Shown here: in pieces, positions 1 through 14,286 of the stretch | How the letters are laid out: each line of letters begins with the position of its first letter | Numbering within the stretch: position 1 is the stretch's first letter | DNA from: Burkholderiaceae bacterium | GTDB taxonomy: Bacteria > Pseudomonadota > Gammaproteobacteria > Burkholderiales > Burkholderiaceae_C | Direction: 5' to 3' | Assembly: GCA_004323695.1 (NCBI GenBank) | Contig: SCRU01000173.1 | Location: 1-64,000 of the forward strand | Length of the DNA: 64,000 nucleotides | Notes under the pieces: model-generated | What the model was told of the DNA's origin: nothing | The model's database searches: none | The model's input: only the letters and a program-made list of their open reading frames with translations | Translations under genes and position numbers: made by a program

Positions 1-290
1 TGGCTGTTGGTCCACGGGAAGTCTTGCCGCGTCGACGACACCACGTACTTCGGCTTGGCCTCCAGCCTGACCGCCCACTCGCGCATCGCCGGCGGCGCCT
101 CCGTGTCGCCGCGCGCGACCGCCGGCCAGGAGCTCTCCATCATCTCGTAGGTGACCCGGCCCCACAGCATCGCCCCACTCTTGTCCATGAGGCGGGTGAA
201 GAAGGCGTGTGTTTCGTCGTCGGCAATGCCCTCCCGGTGGTCGAGGCAACCGTCGAGGGTGACGTTGATGCTGAAGGTCAAGAGCCCCAT
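1..290 (-). CDS. dihydrofolate reductase (RibD C-terminal) family protein, truncated by the left window edge
   Basis: My translation of the minus strand from the ATG at 288-290: MGLLTFSINVTLDGCLDHREGIADDETHAFFTRLMDKSGAMLWGRVTYEMMESSWPAVARG...; matches the DHFR/RibD family pattern. Not in the ORF track because it runs off the edge. Confidence 0.8.
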   Translation of the reverse strand, partial: MGLLTFSINVTLDGCLDHREGIADDETHAFFTRLMDKSGAMLWGRVTYEMMESSWPAVARGDTEAPPAMREWAVRLEAKPKYVVSSTRQDFPWTNS

Positions 291-511
291 GGTGCGAATC
301 TACTCCGAGTTGGGCAGACCGCTGGGCGGGCAGTTGTCGGCGAACACCCATCCACGTTGGTGACGATGGACGCGCCGGTGACGCAGATTCCATTTCGGCA
401 CGGCTCCAACCGAGCCCACGATCGACGCCGGATATACGACTGCAGGCGCTTCCCAAAAAGCCAAAACTATCGATCAGTTTTTTGCCGTTGGGAGGAGTCC
501 ATATACGACCT

Positions 512-1267
512 GTTAGGGCGCATTGGCGCACGATCTTCGCATCTAGCTTGGCGACTGGGGCACCACAGGTTCAGAGAGATCTCGGAACTCAGGCACATAC
601 AGATGAATGGTGCTAAGTAGCTCGTGGGCAATCTGCCGCATACAGGCGAGCTCAGGACGGCCGGCGAGCGCGGACTCCACTCTCCCATCGCTGAATATCC
701 ACCCGAGTGAGTTCTCCCGCGAGAGTGCCATATAGCCTTCTTCAAGACCTGGGTCAACGTGCGCCCCTCCGTCGGTGTCAGCGACATTCAGAACCAACTC
801 GCGTCGACAAAAGGTTCGCTTCTTGTTGTCCTTCAGAACCGGTTCATTCCACCAGTCTACAAACGGCGTGGGACGCAACGGCAGCGGCCCTCCACCGGCC
901 GCTATCAGCGGGAGGTAACTGGCTCCTGTGGATGACACACGCATCATGACCAGATTGCACTCGGTCATCAGATTCCGTGGATTCAGAGGTCCCGCAGAAT
1001 CAAGAAACTTTCCGGTCCTGTATCCGAGCTGATCCAGCAAAGATCGAGAGTCGCCGTGCTGGTGCAAAAGGACCCGAAGGCTCAGGGATATGTGCTTCCC
1101 AACCGCTTCTAATCCATTGTCGTATGACTGGCACGAATGTCTTAAGAGCTGGAGCTGTTCCCGAAGCTCCTTCTTCAAATCGTCCTTGGAGCGTTGCACC
1201 CTTTGTGTCTTTGCCATTTTGTTTTCGCTTTCAGCGTGACACTGCACTAGATACCGTGCGCCCTAAC
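512..1267 (-). mobile_element. putative integron gene cassette (core site GTTAGGGCGCA to inverse core TGCGCCCTAAC on the minus strand)
   Basis: Perfect 11-bp inverted repeat at 512-522 and 1257-1267 tightly bounding one ORF, next to an intI remnant transcribed divergently. Confidence 0.55.
543..1247 (-). CDS. hypothetical protein, probable cassette-encoded (start at 1247 or the internal MAKTQ)
   Basis: 234-aa ORF on the minus strand, visibly lower GC than flanks; no family recognised. Confidence 0.6.
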   Translation of the reverse strand: MQCHAESENKMAKTQRVQRSKDDLKKELREQLQLLRHSCQSYDNGLEAVGKHISLSLRVLLHQHGDSRSLLDQLGYRTGKFLDSAGPLNPRNLMTECNLVMMRVSSTGASYLPLIAAGGGPLPLRPTPFVDWWNEPVLKDNKKRTFCRRELVLNVADTDGGAHVDPGLEEGYMALSRENSLGWIFSDGRVESALAGRPELACMRQIAHELLSTIHLYVPEFRDLSEPVVPQSPS

Positions 1268-1382
1268 TAGAAACAGACGCCGGCCATCTTACCGGGACCA
1301 GTCGGGTAAGACAATCCGTGCTCGGCGCAACCACAGGAAACCCCGATCCCGGCATCGATTAGCCAAACCTAAAATCCGGCGG

Positions 1383-1844
1383 ATGGAGCCGCACGCCACG
1401 CCGTCGCCCGCCGACCCTGCACCCCCGCCGCCGAAGCTGTTGGAGCGCATGCGCACGCACCTGCGTACGCGGCATTACAGCCTCCGCACCGAGACGGCTT
1501 GCCTCGACTGGGCGCGGCGCTTCATTCAGTTTCACGGCAAGCGGCACCCGCAGGACATGGGCGCGGCGCAAGTGGAGGCGTTCCTGAGCCATCTGGCGGT
1601 GGACCGGCAGGTGGCCGCTTCGACGCAGAACCAGGCCAAGGCGGCGCACGTGGCGCAGATCGACAAGCCGGTCACGCCACACGTGCTGAGCCATTCGTTT
1701 GCCACGCATCTGCTCCGATCGGGTTATGACATCCGAACCGTGCAGGAGCTGCTGGGGCATGCCGACATGAAAACGACGATGATCTACACCCATGTCATGA
1801 ACAAGGGCGGGCGCGGGGTGCTCAGTCCGCTGGACGCGCTGTGA
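1383..1844 (+). pseudogene. intI: internally deleted integron integrase (IntI-type tyrosine recombinase) remnant
   Basis: N-terminal [58 protein letters not shown] joined directly to C-terminal [60 protein letters not shown]; 153 aa against roughly 320-340 aa for intact IntI. Confidence 0.88.
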
Positions 1845-3163
1845 ACGCCACGACTGCCAATACGCCAACGCCAACGCCAACTCAGGGCCACGCGCCGCTG
1901 GCCGAGCGGTTGCGCCCGCGCGGCCTGGGCGAAGTCGTGGGCCAGCAGCATCTGCTGGGCGAGGGCATGGCGCTGCGCATCGCGTTCGAGTCGGGCCAGC
2001 CGCACAGCTGCATCCTGTGGGGGCCGCCGGGCACGGGCAAGACGACCATTGCGCGGCTGATGGCCGATGCGTTCGACGCCCAGTTCATCACCATCAGCGC
2101 CGTGCTGGGCGGCGTGAAGGACATCCGCGAGGCGGTGGAGCAGGCGGTCGCCGCACGCGACGGCCTGATGCGCCAGCGCACCATCGTGTTCGTCGACGAG
2201 GTGCACCGCTTCAACAAGAGCCAGCAGGACGCGTTCCTGCCGCATGTGGAAAGCGGCCTGTTCACCTTCATCGGCGCGACCACCGAGAACCCGTCGTTCG
2301 AGGTGAACTCGGCACTGCTGTCGCGCGCGACGGTGTACGTGCTGCAGCCGCTGTCGGAACAGGATCTCAAGCAAATAGTGGCCAAAGCCCTTGCCCTTGA
2401 AGAGATTTCAGCTATTGAAGATGTAGCAATTGAGCACCTGGTGGCTTATGCCGACGGCGACGCACGGCGCCTGCTCAACACGCTGGAAACGCTGGCGGTG
2501 GCGGCCGCGCGGGAGCAGTCCGGCGAGATCACCGACGCCTGGATGATGAAGGTGCTGGGGCAGCAGCTGCGCCGCTACGACAAGGGCGGCGAGCAGTTCT
2601 ACGACACCATCAGCGCGCTGCACAAGTCGGTGCGCGGCTCGGACCCCGATGCGGCGCTGTACTGGTTCGTGCGCATGCTCGACGGCGGCGCCGACCCGCG
2701 CTACCTGGCGCGCCGGCTGCTGCGCATGGCCAGCGAAGACATTGGCCTGGCGGACCCGCGCGCGCTGCGCCTGGCGCTCGATGCGGCCGAGGTGTACGAG
2801 CGGCTCGGCAGCCCCGAGGGCGAGCTGGCGCTGGCCGAGTGCGTGGTTTATCTGGCGATGGCGCCGAAGTCGAATGCGGTCTATAAGGCTTTCAACGAGG
2901 CGAAGGCGTTTGTCGCAGGCGGCGGCACGCGCGCGGTGCCGCTGCACCTGCGCAATGCGCCGACCCGGCTGATGAAGGATCTCGACTACGGCCGCGGCTA
3001 CCGCTACGCGCACGACGAGGAGGGCGCGTTTGCGGCCGGCGCGCGCTACTGGCCCGACGATATCGAGGCGCCGACGTTCTACCGGCCGGTCGAGCGCGGG
3101 CTGGAAATCCGGATCGCGCAGCGGCTGCGCGAGCTCAGGGAGCTCAACAATAAGTCGGACTGA
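1841..3163 (+). CDS. rarA: replication-associated recombination protein A (AAA+ ATPase)
   Basis: Walker [52 protein letters not shown] start overlaps the intI remnant stop. Confidence 0.93.
2374..2436 (+). repeat. degenerate AT-rich repeat copy inside rarA
   Basis: GCCAAAGCCCTTGCCCTTGAAGAGATTTCAGCTATTGAAGATGTAGCAATTGAG, composition distinct from surrounding GC-rich codons. Confidence 0.4.
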
Positions 3164-3265
3164 TCGCAGCCCAAACCCGCTGATGGCCCGCGATCTTTCG
3201 AGGGTAAACCCGAGGAAATCGGCCTCTTGGCGCGTGGCGGCCTTGGCTACAATCTCGCCACCCCG

Positions 3266-3297
3266 AACCCGCCACAGGTTGCACAGTGGCGGGTTTT
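3266..3297 (+). terminator. Rho-independent terminator
   Basis: AACCCGCCAC aggttgcaca GTGGCGGGTTTTT: perfect stem followed by a T tract. Confidence 0.8.
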
Positions 3298-3406
3298 TGC
3301 TAGGTGATCAAAAAGGCTTACAAGGTCACACTGTTGGACGGCCCGCGCCGTGGGTTCCAGCGGCGGTCAGCTAGCACATCAGCCGGTTACAAAACGGAGA
3401 ATTTTT

Positions 3407-4339
3407 ATGGATATCCTGCTTCAGCAGATCATCAACGGTCTGGTGCTGGGCAGCATGTATGCCCTGATCGCCCTGGGCTATACCATGGTGTATGGCATCG
3501 TCAACCTGATCAACTTCGCCCATGGCGACGTGCTGATGGTGGGGGCGCTGACCAGCTGGTCCATCATCATTCTCATGCAGAAATCGATGGCCGGCACGCC
3601 GGGCTGGCTGATCCTGCTGATCGCGACCGTCATCGCCTGCGTCGTGTGCGGCGTGCTCAATTACGTGATCGAGAAGCTGGCGTACCGGCCGCTGCGCAAC
3701 GCCCCGAAGCTGGCGCCGCTGATCACCGCGGTCGGCATGTCGCTGCTGCTGGAGGTGCTGGCCCAGATCATCTGGAAGCCCGACTACAAGCCGTATCCCA
3801 CGCTGTTGCCGTCCCAGCCGTTCAACCTCCCCGGCGGCGCGGTGATCACGCCGACCCAGGTCATGGTGCTGGGCGTGACCGTGATTTCGCTGGCCGCCCT
3901 GATGTGGCTCGTGAATTACACCCGCCTTGGCCGGGCCATGCGCGCCACGGCCGAGAATCCGGCGGTGGCGGCGCTGATGGGTGTGAAGCCGGACAACGTG
4001 ATTTCGGCCACCTTCATCATCGGCGCGGTGCTCGCCGCCATTGCCGGCGTGATGTATGCGTCGAACTACGGCACGGCACAGAACATGATGGGTTTCCTGC
4101 CGGGTCTCAAGGCCTTCACGGCGGCGGTTTTCGGCGGCATCGGCAATCTGGCGGGCGCCGTGGTCGGCGGCATTCTGCTGGGACTGATCGAATCCCTCGG
4201 CGCGGGTTACCTCAGTCCCCTGACGGGCGGCTTTCTGGGCAGCAACTATGTCGACATCCTCGCCTTCATCGTGCTCATCTGCATCCTGACGCTGCGTCCG
4301 TCGGGTCTGCTGGGTGAACGGGTGGCGGATCGGGCCTGA
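3407..4339 (+). CDS. livH: branched-chain amino acid ABC transporter permease
   Basis: MDILLQQIINGLVLGSMYALIALGYTMVYGIVNLINFAHGDVLMVG, typical LivH; first of four co-directional liv genes. Confidence 0.93.
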   Translation: MDILLQQIINGLVLGSMYALIALGYTMVYGIVNLINFAHGDVLMVGALTSWSIIILMQKSMAGTPGWLILLIATVIACVVCGVLNYVIEKLAYRPLRNAPKLAPLITAVGMSLLLEVLAQIIWKPDYKPYPTLLPSQPFNLPGGAVITPTQVMVLGVTVISLAALMWLVNYTRLGRAMRATAENPAVAALMGVKPDNVISATFIIGAVLAAIAGVMYASNYGTAQNMMGFLPGLKAFTAAVFGGIGNLAGAVVGGILLGLIESLGAGYLSPLTGGFLGSNYVDILAFIVLICILTLRPSGLLGERVADRA

Positions 4340-4360
4340 TCGCGGGAACGGAGTCTGGAA

Positions 4361-5443
<1,083 letters not shown>

Positions 5444-11285: not shown

Positions 11286-12797
11286 CTTCGGTTTTTTCAC
11301 GGGCTCGGGCAGCGTGGCCCAGGCGCGGATCACGGCATAGCTGCGCCAGGGCTTCCAGCCCGTGGAGGCGGTCTTGGCTTCGCGCGCCGCGCGCAGCGGA
11401 CTTTTGTCGGTCACGCCCAGCGCCCTTTGCAGCGCCACATCGCCGGCCGGGAACGCGTCGGGCCAGCGCAGCGCCCGCATGGCGATGTATTGCGCCGTCC
11501 AGTCGCCGATGCCGGGCAGTTCCCGGAGCGCCGCCACGGTGGCATGCACATCGGCGACACCGTGCAGCGCGAGACGCTTGTCCGCCACGGCCTGCGCGAT
11601 CGCGACGATGGCGGCCTGGCGCTGACGCACGATGCCGAGTTGGCCCAGCGCGTTGCCGCCGGCCCCCGCCAGTACTGCCGGCGCGGGGAACAGGCGCGTC
11701 AACTCGGGGAAAGGCGTGTCGATCGGCTCGCCGAAGCGGTCCACCATGCGCTGCGCCAGCGTGCGCGCGGCTGCCACCGTGATCTGCTGGCCGAGCACTG
11801 CCCGCACGGCCAACTCGTAGCCGTCCATCGCGCCCGGAACGCGCAGGCCGTCGCCCTCTGGAAAGCTCGCGTGCAACACGGCATTGATGGCTTTCGGGTC
11901 GGCATCGAGGTCGAGCATGGCGCGCAGCCGGCGGATCACCAGCGGCAGCACCTCGCGCAGCGAATCGCTCACGCGCAGCAACACCCGGCAGCGCGCTTCG
12001 TCGAACTCGGCACTCAGCCAGCCGGCATGCGTGCGGCCGCCCGCCTCGGTACACAAGGTACGCCGGATCGCGGGGTTGCCGGGGCCGCCCCCAATGGACT
12101 CCACGGCCTGCAGCGTGCGCTTGCCGAAGAAGCCGAGCAGGGCCTGCACGTCGTAGGGCGGCCGGTAGCCGAGCCGGATAGCCTGAGCCAGGCCGGACGT
12201 TGCCGCGCCGTCGCGCCGCAGCTGCGTCGGGTTCAGCCCGTAGTGCTGGACAAAGGCGGCGTTGAAGCGGCGCACGCTGGCAAAGCCGCTGGCCAGGGCG
12301 ATCCGGGTCACGGGCAGGTCCGTGTCCGCCAGCAGTTGCTTGGCCGTGAGAAGGCGGCGCGTTTGCAGGTATTGCAGCGGGGAGACGCCAAACTGCGCCT
12401 CGAAGATACGGCGCAGATGGCGGTCGCTCACGCCCAGCTTGTGTGCCAGTTGCTCCACGGAAGGCGCTTCAATGCCCCACGCCTCCGTCTCGTCCAGCAG
12501 CCGCGCGGCCTGGTGCGCCAGGATGTAGGAGGCGTCCTGGACTGACCAGACGACCGAATGCGGCGCCAGCTCCGGCCGGCAGCGCAGGCAGGGCCGGAAG
12601 CCCGCGCGCTCGGCCTGCGCGGCATGGCCGAAGAACCGGCAGTTCTCCCGCTTGGGCGTCTTCACGCGGCATACCGGGCGGCAGTAGATGCCGGTCGACG
12701 TGACGCCGGTGAAGAAGCAGCCGTCGAAGCGCGCATCCCGCGCCTTGAGGGCGAGGTAGCAGGCGTCGGGCGCAATGGTGACGGTATCGGGGAGCAT
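11250..12797 (-). CDS. Ada-type regulator / DNA-3-methyladenine glycosylase II fusion
   Basis: N-terminal Ada Zn domain (GIYCRPVCRVKTPKRENCRFF, FRPCLRCRPE), AraC HTH, C-terminal AlkA HhH-GPD domain. Confidence 0.9.
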   Translation of the reverse strand: MLPDTVTIAPDACYLALKARDARFDGCFFTGVTSTGIYCRPVCRVKTPKRENCRFFGHAAQAERAGFRPCLRCRPELAPHSVVWSVQDASYILAHQAARLLDETEAWGIEAPSVEQLAHKLGVSDRHLRRIFEAQFGVSPLQYLQTRRLLTAKQLLADTDLPVTRIALASGFASVRRFNAAFVQHYGLNPTQLRRDGAATSGLAQAIRLGYRPPYDVQALLGFFGKRTLQAVESIGGGPGNPAIRRTLCTEAGGRTHAGWLSAEFDEARCRVLLRVSDSLREVLPLVIRRLRAMLDLDADPKAINAVLHASFPEGDGLRVPGAMDGYELAVRAVLGQQITVAAARTLAQRMVDRFGEPIDTPFPELTRLFPAPAVLAGAGGNALGQLGIVRQRQAAIVAIAQAVADKRLALHGVADVHATVAALRELPGIGDWTAQYIAMRALRWPDAFPAGDVALQRALGVTDKSPLRAAREAKTASTGWKPWRSYAVIRAWATLPEPVKKPKTTKNIANTIDF

Positions 12798-12885
12798 GGT
12801 GTGGATGATAGGCCCGCCGCGGGTTTTGACTCGCCGTTTCCGGACATGTCCACCCGCCTACAATCCCGGCAACTCTCCAGAAACC

Positions 12886-14286
12886 ATGCAAGGGACACGC
12901 TTCGTGCAGCTCGCCGCCTCCATTTTCAAGGCCTATGACATTCGCGGCGTGGTGCCGTCCACGTTGAACCCCGAAGTCGCCGAGGCGCTGGGACGCGCGT
13001 TTGGCACGATCGCCCGCGCGCACGGCGAGCGGGTCGTTGCCGTGGGACGCGACGGGCGCCTGAGCGGCCCCGCGCTGGCCGCCGCCCTCGTGCGCGGCCT
13101 CGTCGCCGCCGGCATCGATGTGATCGACATCGGCATGGCGACGACGCCCATGCTTTATTTTGCCGCCAGCACACTTTGCGCCAGCGGCATCCAGGTGACC
13201 GGCAGCCACAACCCGAAGGACGATAACGGTTTCAAGATGGTGCTGTGCGGCCGCGCCATTTACGGTGACGACATCCAGGCGCTGCGCCGCATGATGGAAG
13301 ACGAGAGTTGGGTGCTGCAGCCGCGCGGCCACATCCGCAACATCAGCGTGCTGGCCCCGTACCAGGCCCGCATCGTCTCCGACGTGAAGCTGGCACGCCC
13401 CATGCATATCGTGGTCGATTGCGGCAACGGCGTGGCCGGCGCGTCCGCCCCCGCCATTTTTCGCGCGCTCGGCTGCCGCGTCACCGAGCTGTTCTGCCAG
13501 GTGGACGGCAGCTTTCCGAACCACCATCCCGATCCGAACAAACCCGAGAACCTGCGCGACCTCATCGGGGCACTGCGCGACACCGGTGCCGAACTCGGCC
13601 TGGCCTTCGACGGCGACGGCGACCGGCTCGGCATCGTCACGCGGGACGGCAGCATCATCTACGCGGACCGCCAGCTGATCCTGTTCGCGCGCGACGTGCT
13701 CGGCCGCGTGCCGGGCGGCCAGGTCGTGTTCGACTCGAAGTGCTCGCAGCGCCTGGCGCCTGCGATCGAGGCGGCCGGCGGCAGGGCGCTGATGTACCGG
13801 ACCGGGCATTCGCTGATCAAGGCGAAGATGGCCGAGATCGGCTCGCCGCTCGGCGGCGAGATGAGCGGCCACATCTTCTTCGAGGAGCGCTGGTTCGGTT
13901 TCGACGACGGCACCTATGCGGGCTGCCGGCTGCTCGAAATCGTGGCCCGGTCGCCTGACGCCAATGCCGTGCTGAACGCCTTGCCGACCAGCTTTTCCAC
14001 GCCCGAACTGAATATCGGCTGTGCCGAGGGCGAGCCGCCCGGCATCGTGGCGCGCGTGGTGGCGCGGGCCCGTTTTGCGCCGCCGGCGCGCATCAGCACC
14101 GTCGATGGGCTGCGGGTGGACTGGCCGGACGGTTTCGGTCTGATCCGCGCGAGCAATACCACGCCGATGCTGGCGCTGCGCTTCGAAGGCCATACGCCCG
14201 AAGCCCTGCAGCGCATCCAGACGGAGATGCTCGCGCTGTTGCGCCAGGTCCGGCCCGAAGCAAAAATCGAGGAAGCCGCGCATTGA
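12886..14286 (+). CDS. phosphomannomutase/phosphoglucomutase
   Basis: FKAYDIRGVVP, TGSHNPKDDNGFKM, FDGDGDRLGIV. Confidence 0.92.
   Translation: MQGTRFVQLAASIFKAYDIRGVVPSTLNPEVAEALGRAFGTIARAHGERVVAVGRDGRLSGPALAAALVRGLVAAGIDVIDIGMATTPMLYFAASTLCASGIQVTGSHNPKDDNGFKMVLCGRAIYGDDIQALRRMMEDESWVLQPRGHIRNISVLAPYQARIVSDVKLARPMHIVVDCGNGVAGASAPAIFRALGCRVTELFCQVDGSFPNHHPDPNKPENLRDLIGALRDTGAELGLAFDGDGDRLGIVTRDGSIIYADRQLILFARDVLGRVPGGQVVFDSKCSQRLAPAIEAAGGRALMYRTGHSLIKAKMAEIGSPLGGEMSGHIFFEERWFGFDDGTYAGCRLLEIVARSPDANAVLNALPTSFSTPELNIGCAEGEPPGIVARVVARARFAPPARISTVDGLRVDWPDGFGLIRASNTTPMLALRFEGHTPEALQRIQTEMLALLRQVRPEAKIEEAAH

What the first reader, a model, noticed from the sequence alone, without database searches (positions are those of the whole stretch)
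512..1267. Single-ORF gene cassette bounded by an 11-bp inverted repeat next to a relict integron integrase
Read on the minus strand, GTTAGGGCGCA (1267-1257) lies just before the 234-aa ORF and TGCGCCCTAAC (522-512) just after its stop. They are perfect reverse complements. Integrated integron cassettes show exactly this: the first bases of a cassette are complementary to the inverse core (R'') of its own attC. The ORF reads away from intI, as cassettes do in class 1-3 layouts, and is visibly less GC-rich than its flanks. One deviation: the strict 7-mer GTTRRRY is matched only up to the last position (GTTAGGG, then C). The protein matches no family I recognise.
Basis: partly seen in the sequence, partly recalled or inferred. 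Interest (0 to 1): 0.75.

Follow-up and report, generated by a model that had tools for sequence, protein, structure and literature searches.

The report
Stranded gene cassette in dead integron
The gene is a genuine integron cassette, captured next to an integron integrase that has since lost most of its length; its own recombination site was cut off after the first box by a targeted insertion sequence, so it is a decayed example of a known system carrying a protein of unknown function.

Summary
The 11-bp inverted repeat is real and the cassette reading holds. Window 512-1267 is an integron cassette at the attI site of a chromosomal integron next to rarA. The integrase (1383-1844) is dead: about 180 residues are deleted and the HxxR arginine is Ser. 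Homologs of the ORF (64-80% identical) occur in Vibrio, Luteimonas, Rhodocyclaceae and another betaproteobacterium; in four of five the ORF is bounded by attC-type boxes, and V. tasmaniensis shows the same 11-bp pairing. At the same locus one congener has a different first cassette and two have no integron. The attC itself is missing: only its first box (R'', 522-512) survives. The next ~150 bp (360-508) are the right end of an IS110/IS1111-family insertion sequence whose complete copies, here and in relatives, sit at exactly this point between R'' and L'' of attC sites. The cassette can therefore no longer be excised by the normal route (inferred). The protein (224 aa from ATG 1217; the GTG-started 234 aa is probably an overcall) has no Pfam family. 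Distant relatives sit beside Gabija, Lamassu and type I restriction genes, so a defence role is a testable lead, unproven. Kind: known. Protein function: open.

The parts
1383..1844 (+). Relict integron integrase intI: N-terminal SAM-like part fused in frame to the C-terminal part; about 180 internal residues missing; HxxR motif reads HVLS
   Evidence: comparison with full-length intI of G007 and G017
1268..1382 (-). attI region; conserved in relatives up to ...TTTCTAG|TTAGG. Possible cassette promoter Pc on the minus strand: TTGTCT (1314-1309), 17 bp, TAAGAT (1291-1286); -35 conserved as TTG[AT]CT in three of four loci
   Evidence: alignment; the generic promoter scan did not call it
1257..1267 (-). 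Cassette 5' end GTTAGGGCGCA: attI/cassette junction core plus first cassette bases
   Evidence: conservation among attI sites stops here
546..1217 (-). Cassette ORF, 224 aa from ATG at 1217 (stop 543-545); family phrog_7805, function unknown
   Evidence: dN 0.17 with saturated dS against the 79%-identical homolog L058
512..522 (-). R'' box, first box of the cassette's own attC (TGCGCCCTAAC); the rest of the attC is missing
360..508 (+). Right-end (3' non-coding) remnant of an IS110/IS1111-family element of the attC-targeting type, abutting R'' through 3 bp
   Evidence: 88% identical to the right end of the complete element at G000:C160
3..290 (-). N-terminal part of a RibD_C-domain gene reading away from the cassette; continues in contig C34 of the same genome; not shown to be a cassette
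1841..3163 (+). rarA (mgsA), the chromosomal neighbour of intI; intI is also directly upstream of rarA in G017 and G036

Best explanation
512-1267 is one integron gene cassette that an active IntI inserted at the attI of a chromosomal integron lying between lolA and rarA. Two decay events then fixed it in place. First, intI suffered a large in-frame internal deletion and a change in the catalytic HxxR motif. Second, an IS1111-type element that targets attC sites inserted between the R'' and L'' boxes of the cassette's attC; later deletion removed the body of the element together with the rest of the attC, leaving R'' joined to about 150 bp of the element's right end. The gene itself stays open and was probably transcribed from a promoter in attI. 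Shown: sequence anatomy, homologous cassettes elsewhere, homology of the IS end, state of intI. Inferred: order of events, expression, loss of excision.
For: Homologs of the ORF at 64-80% identity lie in scattered taxa. In V. tasmaniensis, V. hannami and a Rhodocyclaceae MAG the ORF is preceded by an attC ending in a GTTRRRY core and followed by an R'' box complementary to its own first bases (11, 9 and 9 bp); in SCN2 the match is 7 bp with a downstream attC scoring 24 against a 95% shuffle level of 17.5. The attI region is conserved in G001, G007 and G017 and conservation stops at the GTT core. G001, same genus, has its own dead intI, with a larger deletion, and a different first ORF at the same attI; G002 and G005 have lolA-rarA without integron. 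Right-end copies in relatives mostly start 2-3 bp from an attC-type RYYYAAC core, and complete elements in C160, G047 and G007 are flanked by the two parts of an attC; joining the flanks in G047 gives a clean attC hairpin. G194 shows the same layout, intI - first cassette - R'' - IS right end, with an intact intI. Contig C34 overlaps window 1-120 and leads on to lolA.
Against: No complete attC remains, so attC identity rests on R'' alone plus the IS junction. The core deviates at its last position. The Luteimonas copy has only a degenerate downstream site. The C34 link is a 120-bp contig overlap, not a closed assembly. The IS remnant has no left end here, so insertion rather than recombination with another copy is inferred.
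Confidence: 0.93

Rival explanations
1. The 380-522 stretch is the cassette's own long attC (R' at about 409-403, GTTGGAG), and its near-copy in C160 is a second attC of the same chromosomal array.
For: A second copy 88-90% identical exists in the genome, many copies exist in relatives, and GTTGGAGC lies about 115 bp from R''.
Against: The same stretch is the right end of complete IS elements with an IS110-family transposase; homology runs on past the supposed R' into the IS non-coding region; no better fold than shuffles; scan at background.
Confidence: 0.02
2. An ordinary chromosomal gene with a chance inverted repeat, beside an unrelated integrase fragment.
For: An exact repeat of 11 bp or more arises in about 0.3% of random intervals; no complete attC.
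Against: Homologs are bona fide cassettes with the same kind of repeat; the gene is absent from the 6 congeners searched and only two distant homologs occur in 200 relatives; the repeat's 5' arm coincides with the end of conserved attI.
Confidence: 0.03
3. The cassette lies in the opposite direction (R'' at 1257-1267, entering from the IS side) and the ORF is antisense to it.
For: The two arms are inverted repeats, so the boundary alone does not give direction.
Against: 1268-1382 is attI by homology, not attC; ORF direction equals cassette direction in homologous cassettes; in the complete IS copies the right end faces R'', as here.
Confidence: 0.02

Closest known systems
Sedentary chromosomal integrons with inactivated intI (Xanthomonas, downstream of ilvD)
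   Same: Integron at a fixed chromosomal neighbour, intI inactivated by large deletions, cassettes left in place and differing between lineages (PMC12444791).
   Different: Here the neighbour is rarA and the host is a Burkholderiales-type betaproteobacterium (inferred); no intact attC near intI.
IS1111-attC group insertion sequences (ISKpn4, ISPst6, ISPa25)
   Same: IS1111-type element with a long 3' non-coding region that inserts at one end of attC sites (PMC11187229; Tetu and Holmes 2008 and Post and Hall 2009 known by citation only).
   Different: Only the right end is left in the window; a complete relative is in contig C160. seekRNA and target pairing were not tested.
phrog_7805
   Same: The ORF matches over nearly its whole length (E 1.3e-48).
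   Different: The PHROGs family has no function; members here are carried by integron cassettes, plasmids and phages alike.
Anti-phage integron cassettes (Darracq 2025, Getz 2025, Kieffer 2025, cited in PMC12444791)
   Same: Small single-gene cassettes of unknown function in chromosomal integrons; distant kin beside defence genes.
   Different: No PADLOC match, no phage test.

Membership tests
Integron gene cassette (integrated) | Single ORF between a GTTRRRY-type core at the 5' end and its own attC at the 3' end | tested here: inconclusive
   5' core and R'' present and complementary over 11 bp; L'', L' and R' absent, replaced by IS sequence.
Integron gene cassette (integrated) | Located at attI beside intI, reading away from intI | tested here: met
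Integron gene cassette (integrated) | Variable content at that position among relatives; same gene as cassette elsewhere | tested here: met
Functional integron integrase | Full-length IntI with catalytic residues and the integron-specific domain | tested here: not met
   188.7 bits against cut-off 265; about 180 internal residues missing; HVLS for HxxR
IS1111-attC group | IS110-type DEDD transposase | tested here: met
   Met for the complete copy in C160 (PF02371, PF01548); the window remnant has no transposase.
IS1111-attC group | Insertion at a fixed point at one end of attC | tested here: met
   Complete copies in C160, G047 and G007 split attC between R'' and L''; window remnant abuts R''.
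IS1111-attC group | seekRNA with segments matching the attC target | not tested
   Not searched in the non-coding region.
Known anti-phage defence proteins | Match to a defence family, or tested protection | tested here: not met
   No PADLOC match at E <= 1; no similar solved structure.

The most novel reading that the evidence does not exclude
The 224-aa protein belongs to an uncharacterised single-gene anti-phage (or anti-plasmid) family that travels as integron cassettes in Gram-negatives and on plasmids and prophages in other phyla; invariant residues C29, D33, R138, GGAH-D (150-155), R194 and E199 would form its active or effector site.
Probability: 0.3. Interest if true: 0.6.

Novelty: new member of a known kind. 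Interest (0 to 1): 0.35.

Why it matters
It is a clear fossil of how a chromosomal integron dies: integrase deletion plus attC truncation by an attC-seeking insertion sequence turns a mobile cassette into a fixed gene. A standard attC-based search would probably miss this cassette, since no complete attC is left. The cassette protein family spans Proteobacteria, Firmicutes, Actinobacteria and phages and has no known function, so a small defined set of homologs is ready for phage-challenge tests.

Tried and rejected
Folding 398-527 on both strands as attC: no better than shuffles. Reading the 407-508 repeat as a second attC of an array: rejected once the complete IS copies were seen. Reverse cassette direction: rejected. 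A first version of the attC scan was too strict to recover known sites; a relaxed one reached or passed the 95% shuffle level in five of six control regions (not in Luteimonas L062) and found nothing in the window or C34. Pfam, NCBIfam and PADLOC gave no family for the ORF. Two AlphaFold2 models (pLDDT 78 and 83) matched no PDB fold; the AbiV hit (E 4.5 and 9.2, TM 0.26-0.28) is not meaningful. In BFVD one uncharacterised Gordonia phage protein matched. Tetu and Holmes 2008 is not held.

Full report
Observation. In 3000 random gene-sized intervals of the window, with the same flank sizes, an exact repeat of 11 bp or more occurred 8 times, so the repeat alone is suggestive, not decisive. The ORF is open, lower in GC (0.556 for 512-1267) than its flanks (0.657 and 0.677), and reads away from a truncated intI. 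Homologs align from the ATG at 1217, so the protein is probably 224 aa.

Integrase and locus. The 153-aa product keeps the N-terminal part and profile positions 248-315 of the integron integrase model TIGR02249 and misses about 180 residues between. Where full-length relatives read PHVLRHSFATH the window reads [11 protein letters not shown], so the HxxR arginine is lost too. It cannot be a working integrase (inference from the known catalytic residues of tyrosine recombinases). Full-length intI lies directly upstream of rarA in G017 and G036. In the same genus, G001 has a dead intI with a larger deletion in the same place, while G002 and G005 have lolA followed by rarA with no integron. Contig C34 of the window's own genome shares 120 bp with the window's left end and runs through the RibD_C gene, a tautomerase, a GFA protein, a methyltransferase-like ORF and a permease to lolA. 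The ancestral order lolA - integron - rarA is therefore likely, although the C34 join rests on the overlap.

Cassette. The ORF has close homologs in only a few, unrelated genomes, and only two distant ones among 200 relatives. In V. tasmaniensis it lies in a Vibrio-type array: the attC before it ends in GTTAGCCGTAA and the ORF is followed by TTACGGCTAAC, an 11-bp pair exactly like the one in the window. V. hannami and a Rhodocyclaceae MAG show 9-bp pairs, SCN2 a 7-bp pair with a strong attC downstream; the Luteimonas copy has a core upstream and a degenerate site downstream. The repeat is thus what an integrated cassette should show. Synonymous sites are saturated against the 79%-identical SCN2 homolog while dN is 0.17, which points to purifying selection on the protein.

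The missing attC. The stretch left of R'' does not fold better than shuffles. It is 88% identical to the end of a complete 1473-bp element in contig C160 whose transposase belongs to the IS110 family. Copies of this end in relatives abut an RYYYAAC-type core, in most cases 2-3 bp away. Complete copies in G007, G047 and C160 have the rest of an attC on the other side; in G047 the joined flanks fold into a clean attC hairpin, in G007 and C160 the hairpin is weaker or less complete. So the element enters attC between R'' and L'' with its right end facing R'', in keeping with IS1111 elements that target one end of attC sites (PMC11187229). In the window only about 150 bp of that right end remain (360-508), followed by unrelated sequence before the RibD_C gene. 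G194 has the same arrangement beside an intact intI. The most economical account is insertion into this cassette's attC, then deletion of the element's body and the rest of the attC.

Expression. A TTG[AT]CT hexamer is conserved in attI of the window, G007 and G017 (CTGTCT at that place in G001), 17 bp before TAAGAT in the window. This is a plausible cassette promoter, though the generic scan did not call it; it is an inference.

Protein. The family is phrog_7805, function unknown. Fourteen members share C29, D33, R138, GGAH-D at 150-155, R194 and E199. Two models of fair confidence (pLDDT 78 and 83) match no solved fold. Distant relatives (28-43% identical) lie beside GajA/GajB on a Staphylococcus plasmid, beside LmuA/LmuB-like genes on a Pseudomonas plasmid, beside a type I restriction system on a Lactococcus plasmid, and in accessory positions of phages; other contexts examined held a toxin-antitoxin pair, recombinases or nothing telling. 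This is a hand-picked set without a background rate. Work on Vibrio cholerae found that a fifth of integron cassettes without predicted function were anti-phage genes (cited in PMC12444791). A defence role is therefore a reasonable lead, at about 0.3, and is untested.

Verdict. The finding is a new member of a known kind: a cassette stranded in a decayed chromosomal integron. The host is a betaproteobacterium of Burkholderiales type by gene content; the genome record is unnamed, so this is an inference.

Noticed in passing
L002 (G000:C160) 20-1650: A second integron trace in the same genome: an attC split by a complete IS1111-type element (131-1603); its right flank AGCCAAACCTGAAATTTTGCGGATGG resembles the 5' end of the window's intI (about 1361-1386), next to a fumarate-hydratase-like gene.
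   Followed up: partly
L066, L068, L069, L070, L072, L073: Many relatives carry only the last 130-260 bp of this IS, mostly at attC-type cores, without a transposase nearby. Decayed copies or non-autonomous elements carrying the guide-RNA region; not distinguished.
   Followed up: partly
L123 (G001), upstream of rarA: Sister species: dead intI with a different deletion, a YdeI-like ORF as first cassette and attC-like sites further along.
   Followed up: partly
L065 (G194:C13) 11445-12977: Intact intI followed by one short cassette whose R'' abuts the same IS right end at the contig end: the same layout as in the window.
   Followed up: partly
L118 (G000:C34) 1-4418: RibD_C, tautomerase, GFA and methyltransferase-like genes, all reading away from intI between the cassette and lolA, without detectable attC; possibly old cassettes with eroded sites.
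   Followed up: partly
L142 (NZ_CP154367.1) 1-4223: Distant homolog of the ORF directly downstream of Gabija gajA-gajB on a Staphylococcus xylosus plasmid.
   Followed up: partly
L137 1625-2491: Viral-contig homolog (55%) shortly after a tRNA-like 3' end, a typical integration point.
   Followed up: no
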